The translations under genes were made by a program, and so were the position numbers. From Nitzschia sp. pyKryTriq1 (taxonomy: Eukaryota > Bacillariophyta > Bacillariophyceae > Bacillariales > Bacillariaceae): DNA of 64,000 bases. Under the pieces are notes generated by a model. That model had not been told where the DNA came from. It worked only from the letters and a program-made list of their open reading frames with translations, and searched no databases. Location: assembly GCA_956465555.1 (NCBI GenBank), contig OY101120.1, positions 1 to 64,000 on the forward strand, given 5' to 3'. The first letter of the stretch is position 1. Each line of letters starts with the position of its first letter. This document shows positions 11,525 to 18,781 of the stretch, piece by piece.

Positions 11525-13276
11525 TTAGTTATGCCAAGTACGACGTTCTCCCCGTTTCTTCATTTTAGTACCCGTAGCCGTACTTTTACGAGAGGGTCCA
11601 CTAGTAGTAGGAGACGAAGGAGGACTTTGGATGGATATCATAGACTCATGGCCCGTGAGTGCAAATGGCGCCGAGCCGTCTCCTTCGTCGTCCGCCCCTT
11701 CGTCATCTTCTGCTGTCACTTGCAATACCAGTCTTCCCGTTGCCTTGTACAAGACATCAAAGGCATCGTTACTGGTGGTCGGACAGGCAGTTCCATTTAT
11801 GGAAAGGATTCGATGTCCGGGTTGAAGATTGGTGCTTCCAAAAAGTCCGGTGGCAACCACCGCTTGCACAGTGATGGCACCACAATCTCCATTCTTTTTT
11901 CGATCCTGCCGTAAAAAGATACCTAGACGAGGATCCTGATCCTTCTTCTTGACGACATGAATTTCGATTATCTTGTTTTTGGAGTTGTGGTGTTTTTCAG
12001 TGACTTCTTGTCGTTTGCCTTCTTCTTGAAATAGTTCTTCTTCTTGCAGGGATTGACTGCTAGCAATAGAACGATCAGAGTGTCTCGATGGATGATTGAT
12101 CGAAGTTGCCAGCGCATTTTCGTTCGATTCGGATTCGACGCTTGAAGCAGGAGGAGGAGTCGGAGAAGGAATCAGTGCGGTACTGGGCGAAGGTTTCGAA
12201 GAAGTCTCGGGGCTCTTGGAATCACCGTCACGGCTGACGATTTCGGGGGGGAGACGCGGCGTGGCTTCAGAAGACGATGGCGATGATACCAGTACTGAGA
12301 TATTCGGCGCGGAATGAATCTTGAGGAATCGTTTGGAAGAAGAGCCTTTCTGCAGGTGTCGCGTGGCTGTGCTTTGTTTTGGATTTTGATCGTCATCTTC
12401 TTGATTGCTCGAGATCGGACTTGGTAGTACTACTGGCTGGGCAGCAGTGCCGGTACCCGTAACGCTCGCCGCTGGATACATCGCTAAGGAGGGAGGCTCA
12501 GATCCCAGACGCTTGATGGATCGAGAACGTGTTTCTTCCTTGAGTTGCTCTTGAAACAAAGGTGCCGTATTGATCGCGACCACGATGGGTGGCTTGGAAA
12601 AAGGGTTGTGCCGTTTAGCGACGATACTACGTTCCATTGAGGCTTGTCGTCTTTGAATTCTAGCTCTTTTGAGATACTTTGATCCCAATGGAGGCGCCCG
12701 TGAAATGACATCACCGTTAATGTTGGAAACGGTATATCCTGGTTGTAATTTAGATGGAATGGGAAGAGTTGCCTGAGCTTGACTTCCGAACATTCCATTC
12801 CGATACAGTCGAGCGATAGTGACAGCTTGTGTAAGTCGATGGATGGAAAAGGATATCCCCGCAGTCTGGCGTCTCGTTTGGAAGAAGGTAAACCACTGTT
12901 TCTTTCCCGTCCGCACCACGCCGTACAGTTGTAACACTACCGGTTCTGCCGGACGACGACTGTTGCTGTCGCTGCTGTTGTGGCTATTTCGGTTTGCCGC
13001 TGCCGCCAGAGCATCGAGCCGCCCACGCACCGCCTTGGAAGATTGACCGATTACACATTGCCCATTAACTGCTACCACTTGCAATCCCGCCAGTAGCAGC
13101 CCGTTGAATTGTTTTGTCTCGCGTCTCTGTTGCGGCGCCTTGGTTAAGATAACTATCGGATTTGCTGAATTTAGTGAATTTGAATGTTGGGATGCGGCCA
13201 GAGTTCCCACTTCGATCGAAGAGCGATGATGAATGACGGCCGTCCAAGTGAAAGCATTATCAGTACTTGTAGTCAT
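11525..13276 (-). CDS. PDZ-like domain protein
   Basis: 583 residues from the ATG at 13276 (MTTSTDNAFTW). An upstream in-frame ATG at 13354 would add 26 residues coded by an AATGAAC minisatellite, so it is less likely. The clearest domain is near the C-terminus: LGIFLRQD, AITVQAVVATGLFG, then LQPGHRILSINGTACPT and a closing LVLQVTAED strand, which follows the PDZ order with its carboxylate-loop-like start. Two weaker PDZ-like units precede it: FNGLLLAGLQVVAVNGQCV (about 65-95), and ISFSIHRLTQAVTIARLYRNGMFG with LQPGYTVSNINGD (about 140-190). The middle (about 230-450) is Ser/Pro-rich and disordered. PDZ domains bind short C-terminal peptides, so a scaffold role is likely; the partner is unknown. 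No membrane segment is seen. Confidence 0.7.
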   Translation of the reverse strand: MTTSTDNAFTWTAVIHHRSSIEVGTLAASQHSNSLNSANPIVILTKAPQQRRETKQFNGLLLAGLQVVAVNGQCVIGQSSKAVRGRLDALAAAANRNSHNSSDSNSRRPAEPVVLQLYGVVRTGKKQWFTFFQTRRQTAGISFSIHRLTQAVTIARLYRNGMFGSQAQATLPIPSKLQPGYTVSNINGDVISRAPPLGSKYLKRARIQRRQASMERSIVAKRHNPFSKPPIVVAINTAPLFQEQLKEETRSRSIKRLGSEPPSLAMYPAASVTGTGTAAQPVVLPSPISSNQEDDDQNPKQSTATRHLQKGSSSKRFLKIHSAPNISVLVSSPSSSEATPRLPPEIVSRDGDSKSPETSSKPSPSTALIPSPTPPPASSVESESNENALATSINHPSRHSDRSIASSQSLQEEELFQEEGKRQEVTEKHHNSKNKIIEIHVVKKKDQDPRLGIFLRQDRKKNGDCGAITVQAVVATGLFGSTNLQPGHRILSINGTACPTTSNDAFDVLYKATGRLVLQVTAEDDEGADDEGDGSAPFALTGHESMISIQSPPSSPTTSGPSRKSTATGTKMKKRGERRTWHN

Positions 13277-13660: not shown

Positions 13661-16600
13661 CTAGCCTTCAAGAAGAAGATTGAACAAGTTCCTTCCTTGC
13701 TCTGTGCCAGACGATACTGCCACGGCTGGTGCGTTCTTCTTCGAAGGAGGCTTTGCTTCCTTTTTTATAGGCGACACAGTTCCTACTGGTTTCGAAGGGA
13801 ACGGATTGTGCTGAACCTTTTTTTCTTTTGTTGAGTTGCTGGAGTTGACCTTTTGGCTCTGTTCGTTGGACTCTGATATTGCTGGTGCTGGTACCACTAG
13901 TAGTGGTGCTGCTGCGTCGTCTGCTGGTACTTGTTCGATGTTCTTCGAGTCTTCCTTGGATAACGATTCTTTCTTTTTGGCTGCTCGTTCGGCTCTTACT
14001 GCGGCTTCCTGTGCAATAATTTCGTTAATCCTAACCAAAGTATTCTGACGCTTCTCCTTGTCGCCACCACGAATCGTCACTTTCAGCGCTTCTCGATTGA
14101 TATCAATCTTGCACTCGAATTCTTTCTCGAGCGCTCTAGCAGTCCCTCCCTTTTCACCAAGAATTGCGGATACGAATTGCTTGTCGATGGAGACTTCAAG
14201 AGACGCGGTGCCCTCTTGCCATGTTTCGATCCACTCGTCGACAAATTTCTTGGCGTTGGCTACTTTGGTTTCGTTGCCAATGATCTTGAACTGACAAGAC
14301 TTACGCTCGCGTTGGATTTCCACATCGTACTCTTTGGACAAATCTTTGACCTTCTTTCCACCGTGACCCATGAAGGAAGGAATTGCTTTCTCGGGGATGT
14401 CGACAAATACGTTTTCACAACAGGCCTTGGCGACGAGAGCGCCAAGTTTCTCGCGTACCTTGTTGACCTTTTCTTCCGATTCTCCTGTTACTGTTATGGT
14501 CCGAGACTCTTTCGACACGTCCAAAAAACAGTCGGATCCCTTTCTAAGAGATTGAATTCGCCCGTTTCCGAGAAGGTATGTGATCAACCAAGCATCGTTG
14601 GGCGCGATCTCTAGCACATATGCAAGACGTTCTGCATCCATAATATTTTTTGAGACTGCTTCCGCGGCAGCTTTAACCTTGCCAGCATCAGCATCCCGAA
14701 TAACAATCGATCCGACATCGCGATCTAGGTAGATGCTAGACCCACCGACAGCAGCAGCAACTTCAGCTAGTAGAGTAGGTTGACCGACCGTCATATAGAG
14801 CGGCTTTGTGACCTTCAAGCGCATAAACTCGCCAGGGCATACAAATGCAAGGAAATCATAGAGCTGTTCTTTTCCTTTTCGGACGTTTGATCTCTTTCCA
14901 GCGATTTGAATTTCCCCGGAAGCCTTCAATAACTCTAGCACGGTATCGGTAGCAGATTGTATACGATCAAGATGAGACGGATCCCGGCAGGTCGAACTCA
15001 CTCGAGCAAATTGAGTGGGGCCCAGCTCGATGGAGCTCTTGTACTCGCCAGTCAGTTTCTCGTTTAGAAGCGACGCGGCTTCCCGAACATCATGAAAGAC
15101 GCCTCGAATGGTCACCTTGCCATCAGCGATGGATAGCTGGGAGTGCGTTTCTTGAGCAATTCGCTTGAGGGCCTCGTTCTTCTCGAGCTTGGCTTCTTGT
15201 TCAGACGAAATGGAAACAACTTGCGCGACACGGGCAGAAGACAGCATCTTCAGAATTTCGACGCGGCATTCTTGGACTTTTTCCTCGGGTCCGCGAATCG
15301 ATACCCGATGAGTCTTGGAGATGTTAATCGCAACGCTGTACTTGGTCTCTAGATCCCTGAGTATCTTCCCACCTTTCCCGATGATTGAGCCGACCACTTG
15401 GTCACTCGCGGAAATCTTGGCGACGCTTTGGCCGTCGCCGCCGTTCAAAAAGACATCGAGATTAATTTTTGCCTTGGCTACATTCTCTGCTGGCCCTCGT
15501 AGAGTTATCGTCCCTTGGCTTTGATTGGCTTTCAAATTGACACCGAGTTCCTCAGACAATTTCATAATCTTGCTCTCCTTTCCTCCCGCTAGTAGCACAT
15601 TGAAATCTTCATCCAGGATTTTGATTTCATCGAACGAGTTCGATGCTAAATATTCTTGGAACACTGCTTTCGCCTTGTCGAGATTTTCTTGCTTCCCCCG
15701 TAGAATAAAGACACTGTTGGTCTCGTCGATATCTAACCGCGCTAATTCCTGGAGCGCGGCTTTGGTCTTGGATCGTCCTAGCTCGCGGTATTGGGACTTC
15801 ATGAGTTCCGGATCGCCAGGGATTCTCAACACGTGGTTGTTTTCGACAATCTTCTGTACCTCGGCAAGAATCGAGTCGCGGCCTTCAGCCGTGGTAGCAC
15901 CAACAATTACTTTGCCGCTCGTTCGGTCCACTTCCAAGAAGAGAGGCTTCCCATAGGTGAGCTTCTTGATGGTCTCGCCGCCCTTTCCGATGATAGTTGG
16001 AACGATGTATGTATCGACCGTAAACGTCACAATCAGGTCTTGCAATTCTTTCAACGCCTCCTCGGTCAACATTGTCGCGCTTTCAATGGCAGACTGCTTG
16101 ACTTTTACTTGTAATTCGGCAACGCCTCGATCTTTCGAGAAGGATAGATGGCACATGAGAGATTCATCCTCCTCTTTAAGTTTCTCGTTGACTTTGCTTT
16201 GGATAGCCTTGATTTGTTTTCCAGATTCGACAAGAAGAATTTGTCTCAAGACCGGATCGACAGCAATGGATTCTGACACTTCCCGATTGCTATCCATGAG
16301 TTCTTGAATGGTCTCCATCGTCTCGGCAACTCGTGATGGTGGGCCCGAAATGACAGCCGTGGCCGTATCCTCCGCTTTGTTCTTGGTCACATCAATGACA
16401 ACCTTGTGCGTTTGGACCAACTCATCGATACGAGCTCCTTTCCGTCCGAGTAAATAATTGAACTCTTTGCCTACCAACGTCCGAGTCTCCGATGTGACAT
16501 TCAGAGTCAAGAGTTCCTGTTTTGCCGCCTCTACTCTCTCGGGCGCACCTCGAATCGCTGCCTTGTTGGCTCCACGGATAATGTCCAAATAAAGGTCCTC

Positions 16601-17712
16601 GTATTTACTCTTAATGTTGGCCAGGGCGTCAATATGAGAGCCCATCAGATACGCCACAACCTCAGCGGGTAGAGTAATCTCGGTCTCGACCGAATGAGAA
16701 ATCGATTCAATCTCGGACTTTGCTGCTTTGACGGCGGCCGCTCCTCCCGTGATGGTAGCAATACACGTATCCTTACTCACATCAATTGTCACTTTATGAG
16801 TATCCATGAGTTGTTGAATCCGACTCCCTTGCTTGCCAATGATATATCCGAGCTTGTCTTTGGGGCATTCGACGGTGATGGTCGTCAATTCTTGCATCTC
16901 GCAACCCAACTGATTAGCTAGTTTGACTTTCGAAAGGCCGGTCTCGATCTCTTGGATACTTTCACGCTGAGTCTTTTGACCAGTTTTCAACTCGTCTAAT
17001 TTCATCTGTGGATATAGGATTATTATTGGTGGTAATATTAGAGACCCATATATTATTTCGAAATACGAGCAAAGACGACTCGAGTGTTAGATGGAACTCA
17101 TCGTATAGTTATTATTAACCGATCGATCGACTGTACGTACCTTGACGTCTTGTACTTTACGCTCCATGGATTCATATTCCTCGACTTGCGACTTGGCTTT
17201 CTGAATTCCATTAATCTCCTTGAGAATTAGTCGTTCCTCGGCCAGGGACATGCTAGTGATTGTTCGTTTGCGTTCCAAATCACTACGTTTGATAAAAAGC
17301 AAGAAGCAAGATGCAAGATACGATCGATATTCGGTCGGTTAGCGAGAGTTGATTCGACGTTGATTCTGCTTAATCCGTTGCATGGCGTGACGTACCGAAT
17401 GTTCTGATCCAACTGCGCAATGCTTTCGCGAGGACGACGAGGGATTTTGGTCAAGAGCTTTTGCAATTCGGCCTGTAGTTGCTTGATTTCTGCCTGTATT
17501 AGTATCGAACGAGAATATAATAACAACACACGGAAAACAAGTCAGCACCAAGTATCGATACGCGAGGTATCCAGCCTCGAGATCCATAGCGCCCAGTAAG
17601 GCCACCGGGTCACTTGGACGGTCATTGAATTGAAATGACGTACTTGTTGGGTATTTCGCGTCTGAATGGACTCTTCGAGCCGCCTCGCGAGCTTCTTTTC
17701 CAGTTCCGCCAT
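13661..17712 (-). CDS. Bfr1-like coiled coil fused to vigilin/Scp160-type multi-KH protein
   Basis: Exons, in coding order: 17712-17644, 17493-17396, 17282-17141 and 17005-13661. All phases close, giving 1217 residues, and all three donors read GTACGT. Residues 1 to about 140 form a charged coiled coil. Its segment LDQNIRDLERKRTITSMSLA followed by EERLILKEI matches the pattern of Bfr1-family proteins (R.LE....T.SMSL.EE..L.KEI). About fourteen KH units follow. Canonical GxxG loops are seen in IIGKQGSRI, LLGRKGARI, IIGKGGETI, IIGKGGKIL, FMGHGGKKV and ILGEKGGTA; other units have lost the loop, as in vigilins. A Lys/Ser tail ends the protein. Vigilin/Scp160 binds mRNA and polysomes at the ER. In yeast, Bfr1 is a separate protein that associates with Scp160, so one chain here carries both. 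It is divergent from the gene at 18782. Confidence 0.88.
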
Positions 17713-18781
17713 ACTCGATGCAGCCGAGAGGAGAAACAACTGAAGACAATACGGCCGGGGGGCTCGAGTAGGAGTTCAGGAGTCTGTTACTGGTTTGTAG
17801 TTGGTCGTGATGATGACTTTTGTTTTGATAATGCATAAACGAAACGAGAATCATCTCGGATGTTGGGTCTTGGTCTTCGCTGCGTGACACATCGATGGGA
17901 AGCGTTCCCTCGCGCGAGAAAACGATCGGAGGGGAAAACAATCGGTCATTATTATTGGCGTTCGCGCACGGACGAAATTGTCCGAGAACGATCATTCGAG
18001 TGTTCGATGTTCGATATCGCCCTGTTCGTCTTCCTCTATCGGTACAGTACCGGTAGTCTACCGGTAACGGTAACAACTACATACACGTACGCACGTAATG
18101 ATGACGTCTGCCTCATTCTTCAGGTTGCGTTGTTGCTTGGTCTGATGTTCAATAATACCGGTATGTCTGATCGGATGATAACGACATGTCGCAGATAGAC
18201 GTCGTTCTGCGTTGTCGAAACCGAAACTCCATGTGTGTGACATTCCCTTTCTGAAAAGGAATCCTGATCGGAATGAAACTCAGGGGCACAAGCTGAAACT
18301 CAAATTGCTCTTTGGTTGTATCATGTAAAAGTTGATGAATCTGAAAGACCCCTCAGTTGCAAAGGAGGTAAGCGTTATGAACTAAATATTGAAGATTTCT
18401 GATTCCTGGAATTAGAGTATCGAGAGCAAAGGACGAGTGTGTCGTAGAGTTGTCGGATTCCTCTCGGAGAGACATCATACCGAGGATTTCCCGCCGTCTT
18501 CAACGATCGAAACGTCATCGATCCCTTTCCACCATCCTCCATCAAAATAATGGTGTTTTTCGTTTTTATGAGTACTATGATATTATGCAACATTGTGATG
18601 CGGCATTGGACGACGACGACGGCGACTCCTCTATTATAACATTGTCATTCCGGACGCAACATCCTTACTCCTACCATACTTGCACGCTTTGCTAACATCA
18701 TATCTCTACTAGCTACGTGTAGTTAGTTATTAGTAATCGCAGAGTACAGTAAAAAGATTCAACAGCCAGCAGCAGAATAAC
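17713..18781. promoter_or_regulatory. Divergent intergenic region
   Basis: About 1.1 kb between the divergent starts of the vigilin-like and nucleoside-phosphorylase-like genes, so both promoters should be here. A CGGTACAGTACCGGTAG palindromic cluster lies at 18040-18070. No coding signal is convincing and no core promoter element can be named with confidence. Confidence 0.4.

What the first reader, a model, noticed from the sequence alone, without database searches (positions are those of the whole stretch)
13661..17712. One chain joins a Bfr1-like coiled coil to a vigilin/Scp160 KH array
Seen: four exons with closing phases put a charged coiled coil containing a TSMSLAEERLILKEI pattern directly before about fourteen KH units. 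Known: in yeast, Bfr1 and the vigilin Scp160 are separate proteins that associate on polysomes at the ER. Inference: the fusion is a natural 'Rosetta stone' that would fix their stoichiometry and argues that the pairing is ancient and functional.
Basis: partly seen in the sequence, partly recalled or inferred. Interest (0 to 1): 0.75.

Follow-up and report, generated by a model that had tools for sequence, protein, structure and literature searches.

The report
Vigilin carrying a Bfr1-like helical segment
A diatom gene appears to encode one protein that joins a short helical piece related to the yeast translation factor Bfr1 to a long RNA-binding chain of the vigilin type, two proteins that work together in yeast, although the same genome also keeps a separate Bfr1-like gene.

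Summary
On the minus strand, exons 17712-17644, 17493-17396, 17282-17141 and 17005-13661 join in frame into 1217 codons plus stop. The three introns are GTACGT...AG, and each 5' exon scores best as coding in its predicted frame. About 135 residues of charged, probably helical sequence precede a vigilin-like KH array (KH_1 4.9e-63; KH_Vigilin over cut-off): 9 clear units, 4 weak ones and one unit-sized gap.

The Bfr1 reading is partly right. The best non-self match of the N-terminus in the genome (E 0.00135; next 4.24) is a separate 530-aa Bfr1-like gene on contig C14; the reverse search returns exon 3 (E 0.0134). But only about 60-105 residues are shared and the separate gene remains, so 'fixed stoichiometry' is not supported.

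No other diatom, transcript or structure could be examined. Best reading: a new variant of vigilin with a built-in Bfr1-type helical hairpin.

The parts
17644..17712 (-). Exon 1: ATG start, residues 1-23, charged, probably helical
   Evidence: splice model, in-frame upstream TGA at 17778; coding in frame, +0.44 bits/codon
17494..17643 (-). Intron 1 (150 nt, GTACGT...CAG)
   Evidence: negative coding score in three frames
17396..17493 (-). Exon 2: residues 24-56, helix, proline break (IPRRPRES), start of the Bfr1-like block
17283..17395 (-). Intron 2 (113 nt, GTACGT...TAG)
17141..17282 (-). Exon 3: Bfr1-like core with TSMSLAEERLILKEI (residues 65-79)
17006..17140 (-). Intron 3 (135 nt, GTACGT...CAG)
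13661..17005 (-). Exon 4: end of the helical segment (to about residue 135), vigilin-like KH array (about residues 145-1097), low-complexity tail, stop
   Evidence: no other strong match in the genome

Best explanation
The gene encodes this diatom's vigilin (the only strong match of its array in the genome) with an added N-terminal helical hairpin of the Bfr1 family. Most likely (inferred) the KH array binds mRNA at many points, as human vigilin does on ER-targeted messages, while the Bfr1-type hairpin supplies a protein contact: to the ribosome/ER mRNP site that Bfr1 uses, or to the stand-alone Bfr1-like protein through its related helices. Shown from sequence: gene model, KH array, similarity to the genome's own Bfr1-like gene, and presence of that separate gene. 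Inferred: splicing, the hairpin fold, binding partners, ER function.
For: In-phase exons with strong splice signals and frame-specific coding signal. KH array with KH_1 4.9e-63 and KH_Vigilin 37.1 bits against cut-off 27. N-terminus against the whole genome: best non-self match is the C14 Bfr1-like ORF, E 0.00135, next 4.24; the reverse search (exon 2 of the C14 gene) has window exon 3 as first non-self match, E 0.0134, next 5.22. Ungapped 59-residue block, 32% identical, 73% positive, two-sequence E 1e-8. Shuffles reaching the score against C14: 0 of 2000 free, 0 of 2000 heptad-block, 2 of 2000 class-preserving. Best ungapped 60-residue diagonal is the motif one: 110 against 30 for the next with C14, 76 against 47 with recalled yeast Bfr1. 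A two-sequence Bfr1 profile without the fusion ranks window exon 3 first (E 9.9e-7) among 945 ORFs of the window and held loci plus the spliced chain (3.6e-5); the next, an unrelated reading frame at window 54075-50683, has 0.42. C14 against recalled yeast Bfr1: E 4e-6, 0 of 500 for each of three shuffle types. Literature: Scp160 and Bfr1 bind overlapping mRNAs and associate with ER polysomes (PMC8783092, passages); human vigilin binds more than 80% of ER-localised mRNAs, with multivalent contacts (PMC9117268, abstract).
Against: Against yeast Bfr1, 510 of 2000 class-preserving shuffles of the N-terminus reach the observed score, and such shuffles keep the motif register in 961 (yeast) and 972 (C14) of 1000, so much of the signal is helix pattern. 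No Pfam model matched C14 exon 2 at E 1, nor any PDB chain at E 0.1. The N-terminus alone has 29 weak Pfam hits up to E 10, of which the 25 shown are all under cut-off (best BLOC1_2 0.0046, FlaC 0.0062), and two engineered uteroglobin-peptide chains in the PDB match residues 24-56 at E 1.1e-5 and 1.3e-5. The decoy set is small and not chosen for coiled coils. In yeast the Scp160-Bfr1 co-precipitation is RNA-dependent (PMC8783092), so direct contact is not established. No second species, no transcript and no structure was available.
Confidence: 0.6

Rival explanations
1. The N-terminus is an ordinary coiled coil of a lineage-specific vigilin; the Bfr1-like motif is convergence on a common helix pattern (S-x-S-L-x-E-E cap followed by a charged amphipathic helix).
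For: The hydrophobic/charge pattern carries much of the signal: class-preserving shuffles keep the motif register in 972 of 1000 (C14) and 961 of 1000 (yeast) trials, and 510 of 2000 reach the yeast score. Identity to C14 is only 32% over 59 residues. Two engineered helical PDB chains match residues 24-56 (E 1.1e-5, 1.3e-5).
Against: Mutual first non-self matches in a 40.65-Mb six-frame search; only 2 of 2000 class-preserving shuffles reach the score against C14; identical TSMSL, then EE, at the same place in a 59-residue gapless block.
Confidence: 0.25
2. Two genes misjoined: exons 1-3 belong to a small separate coiled-coil gene, and vigilin starts at the ATG that opens exon 4.
For: Exon 4 starts with an in-frame ATG directly after the intron-3 acceptor. 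No RNA evidence.
Against: Exon 3 ends in an in-phase GTACGT donor and exons 1-3 have no stop before it; intron 3 scores negative with stops in all three frames; by inspection the charged helical stretch continues about 30 residues into exon 4; the yeast pairwise alignment crosses the junction by seven residues.
Confidence: 0.12
3. A true Rosetta-stone fusion that replaces Bfr1 and fixes a 1:1 ratio.
For: Both modules in one predicted chain.
Against: A separate 530-aa Bfr1-like gene, modelled with one intron, exists on C14, and the vigilin carries only the family's central block.
Confidence: 0.03

Closest known systems
Vigilin / Scp160 / HDLBP (multi-KH proteins)
   Same: Long tandem array of KH units (9 clear, up to about 14) as the main body of the chain; Pfam KH_Vigilin over cut-off.
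   Different: N-terminal segment resembling Bfr1. That such a segment is absent from yeast and human vigilin is recalled, not tested.
Bfr1 family (yeast Bfr1, trypanosome ERBP1; PTHR31027)
   Same: Central block with the SL-x-[EQ]-E-[KR]...KE[IM] motif, aligned in the same register with the diatom C14 protein and recalled yeast Bfr1.
   Different: Only about 60-105 residues align; the rest of the 470-530 aa protein is absent, and a KH array follows instead.
Stand-alone Bfr1-like gene of this genome (G000 C14:927480-925607, minus)
   Same: Shares the 59-residue block at 32% identity, 73% positives.
   Different: 530 aa, no Pfam match at E 1 for its exon 2 (so no KH found), and one modelled intron in place of three.

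Membership tests
Vigilin (multi-KH) | Long tandem array of KH domains (about 14) | tested here: met
   9 strong and 4 weak units plus one gap of unit size; KH_1 4.9e-63, 10 stretches. The exact count of 14 is not proven.
Vigilin (multi-KH) | Match to Pfam KH_Vigilin over cut-off | tested here: met
   37.1 bits against 27. The genome-wide scan with the same model found nothing at E 0.001, and none of its 14 control genomes rang.
Vigilin (multi-KH) | Binds ER-targeted mRNA and polysomes | not testable with these tools
   Needs CLIP or fractionation
Bfr1 family (PTHR31027) | Sequence similarity to Bfr1 beyond generic coiled coil (segment) | tested here: inconclusive
   Met against the diatom Bfr1-like gene; mixed against recalled yeast Bfr1 (510 of 2000 class-preserving shuffles; neither gene found)
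Bfr1 family (PTHR31027) | Alignment over the whole length of Bfr1 (as reported for ERBP1, PMC7025706 passage) | tested here: not met
   Only residues 16-131 of the chain align with the C14 protein, strongest over 47-105
Bfr1 family (PTHR31027) | PTHR31027 profile score | not testable with these tools
   No PANTHER library held; no Bfr1-named Pfam model among the hits shown

The most novel reading that the evidence does not exclude
Diatoms, or stramenopiles at large, carry a conserved vigilin with a built-in Bfr1 hairpin beside a separate Bfr1, so the vigilin can dock where Bfr1 docks, or pair with Bfr1 directly. This would show that the Scp160-Bfr1 partnership is a direct, pre-fungal one whose contact lies in the SLxEE...KE hairpin.
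Probability: 0.3. Interest if true: 0.62.

Novelty: new variant of a known kind. Interest (0 to 1): 0.45.

Why it matters
Whether Scp160/vigilin and Bfr1 touch each other directly is unclear: their co-precipitation in yeast is RNA-dependent (PMC8783092, passages). A natural chain carrying a Bfr1-type hairpin on a vigilin, outside fungi, would point to a functional link and to a small segment (about 60 residues) to test. The retained separate Bfr1-like gene makes docking or pairing more likely than replacement. In the listings no title or abstract opening describes such an architecture. These cover open-licence papers only; some searches listed 30 of 31, 20 of 37 and 20 of 166.

Tried and rejected
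Relatives elsewhere: viral contigs, GTDB genomes and phages gave none; these are collections of viruses and prokaryotes, so this is no evidence of rarity. KH_Vigilin genome-wide rang nowhere, its 14 controls included. Looked for printed Bfr1 peptides to check the recalled sequence: the passages shown of the paper tried (PMC5675994) list protein names and counts only. The papers by Lang 2001 and Manchalu 2019 are not held. The passages shown of PMC6940804 and PMC10218906 gave no map of Bfr1 binding sites. A heptad scan did not separate the N-terminus from the KH array. Rejected: replacement of Bfr1 by the fusion (the C14 gene exists). Considered and kept as rivals: convergence of helix pattern; misjoined genes.

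Full report
What is there. The gene lies on the minus strand. Four exons (17712-17644, 17493-17396, 17282-17141, 17005-13661) join to 3654 nt with one terminal stop, giving 1217 residues; an in-frame TGA begins upstream at 17778. My first set of edges was off by a few bases and gave stops; one search corrected it. The three introns (150, 113, 135 nt) all begin GTACGT and end in CAG or TAG. A codon model made from exon 4 alone scores exons 1, 2 and 3 at +0.44, +0.45 and +0.60 bits per codon in the predicted frame, each the best of three; all 12 frames of the introns and 5' flank are negative. This supports one coding chain, but the exons are short and no transcript was available.

The KH array. 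Pfam gives KH_1 E 4.9e-63 with 10 stretches and KH_Vigilin 37.1 bits over a cut-off of 27. Among PDB sequences 8 match at E 0.1 or better: the best are three IGF2BP KH chains (E 1.4e-4 to 6.6e-4), then a vigilin KH domain (2ctk, E 0.0015), FMR1, two engineered uteroglobin chains and a polynucleotide phosphorylase, so at this level the array is KH but not specifically vigilin. A profile was built from 7 KH units of other genes of this genome and 5 of the array. Its first round gives 12 envelopes, the five best being those five array seeds; 4 further units had iE 2.9e-8, 6e-6, 4.8e-5 and 0.0033. After iteration there are 13: nine strong (147-203, 212-269, 279-337, 430-487, 563-620, 633-688, 905-958, 970-1026, 1040-1097) and four weak (363-380, 521-552, 712-751, 780-818); residues about 820-895 fit one more unit by spacing only. 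Later rounds contain the array's own units, so their E-values are flattering. The exon-4 protein has no other strong match in its genome (next E 0.459), although other KH genes are present (24 KH_1 matches in all).

The N-terminus and Bfr1. Searched against the whole 40.65-Mb genome in six frames, residues 1-139 match their own four exons and then C14:926492-926848, E 0.00135; the next is E 4.24. That place is a 506-codon open frame. With an upstream exon it makes a 530-aa protein (C14:927480-927334 and 927052-925607, minus), with TTSMSLTEEKKLIKEM where the vigilin has ITSMSLAEERLILKEI. Its exon 2 returns window exon 3 as the only near match (E 0.0134; next 5.22). The two align without a gap over 59 residues, 32% identical and 73% positive, two-sequence E 1e-8. 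Of 2000 shuffles each, 0 (free), 0 (heptad blocks) and 2 (residues exchanged only within physico-chemical classes) reach the observed score. The best ungapped 60-residue diagonal scores 110, the next 30.

Is the C14 protein a Bfr1? No Pfam model (E 1) and no PDB chain (E 0.1) matches its exon 2. This supports membership, but the sequence is recalled, and in the whole-genome search it finds neither gene. Against yeast Bfr1 directly, the vigilin N-terminus gives E 4e-4, with 1, 1 and 510 of 2000 shuffles reaching the score, and 76 against 47 for the best and next ungapped diagonal: in line with a helix pattern that fits Bfr1, not proof by itself. Class-preserving shuffles keep the register in 961 (yeast) and 972 (C14) of 1000, so pattern is a large part of the signal. 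A profile of C14 plus yeast, without the vigilin, puts window exon 3 first among 945 ORFs of the window and held loci (E 9.9e-7; the same exon appears in eight records; L013 and L015 were left out) and the spliced chain at 3.6e-5; the next hit, a frame at window 54075-50683, has 0.42. That set is small and was not chosen for coiled coils. PMC7025706 (abstract, passages and one section) places trypanosome ERBP1 in the Bfr1 family and reports that its nearest matches outside kinetoplastids are proteins of unknown function in a red alga, an oomycete, a brown alga and the diatom Phaeodactylum, with little identity. A Bfr1-like gene here agrees with that.

What it means. Fixed stoichiometry is therefore not supported. 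I favour a built-in docking or pairing hairpin: the KH array holds messages (as human vigilin holds ER-targeted messages, PMC9117268 abstract) and the hairpin contacts the Bfr1 site on the ER polysome mRNP, or Bfr1 itself. In yeast the co-precipitation of Scp160 with Bfr1 is RNA-dependent and polysome association depends on Asc1 (PMC8783092, passages), so a direct contact is an open question this chain could help to test.

Limits. The genome collections on offer are prokaryotic, viral and plasmid, so age and spread among eukaryotes are unknown; six scans are empty (plasmids were not searched). Paper listings on Bfr1 with Scp160, vigilin, fusion, diatom or Phaeodactylum show no description of this architecture in titles or abstract openings; only open-licence papers are covered and three lists were cut short (30 of 31, 20 of 37, 20 of 166).

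Noticed in passing
window 17005 (minus), first codon of exon 4: Exon 4 opens with an in-frame ATG right after the intron-3 acceptor, so a KH-only isoform is possible.
   Followed up: partly
G000 C14:925607-927480 (L013, L015): Stand-alone 530-aa Bfr1-like gene, modelled with one intron, the genome's closest match to the vigilin N-terminus.
   Followed up: yes
window 11528-13276 (minus): Neighbouring reading frame with a PDZ-like domain just under its Pfam cut-off (23.1 against 23.2 bits).
   Followed up: no
G000 C1:275839-317295: Four of eight silicon-transporter matches lie within about 42 kb on C1.
   Followed up: no
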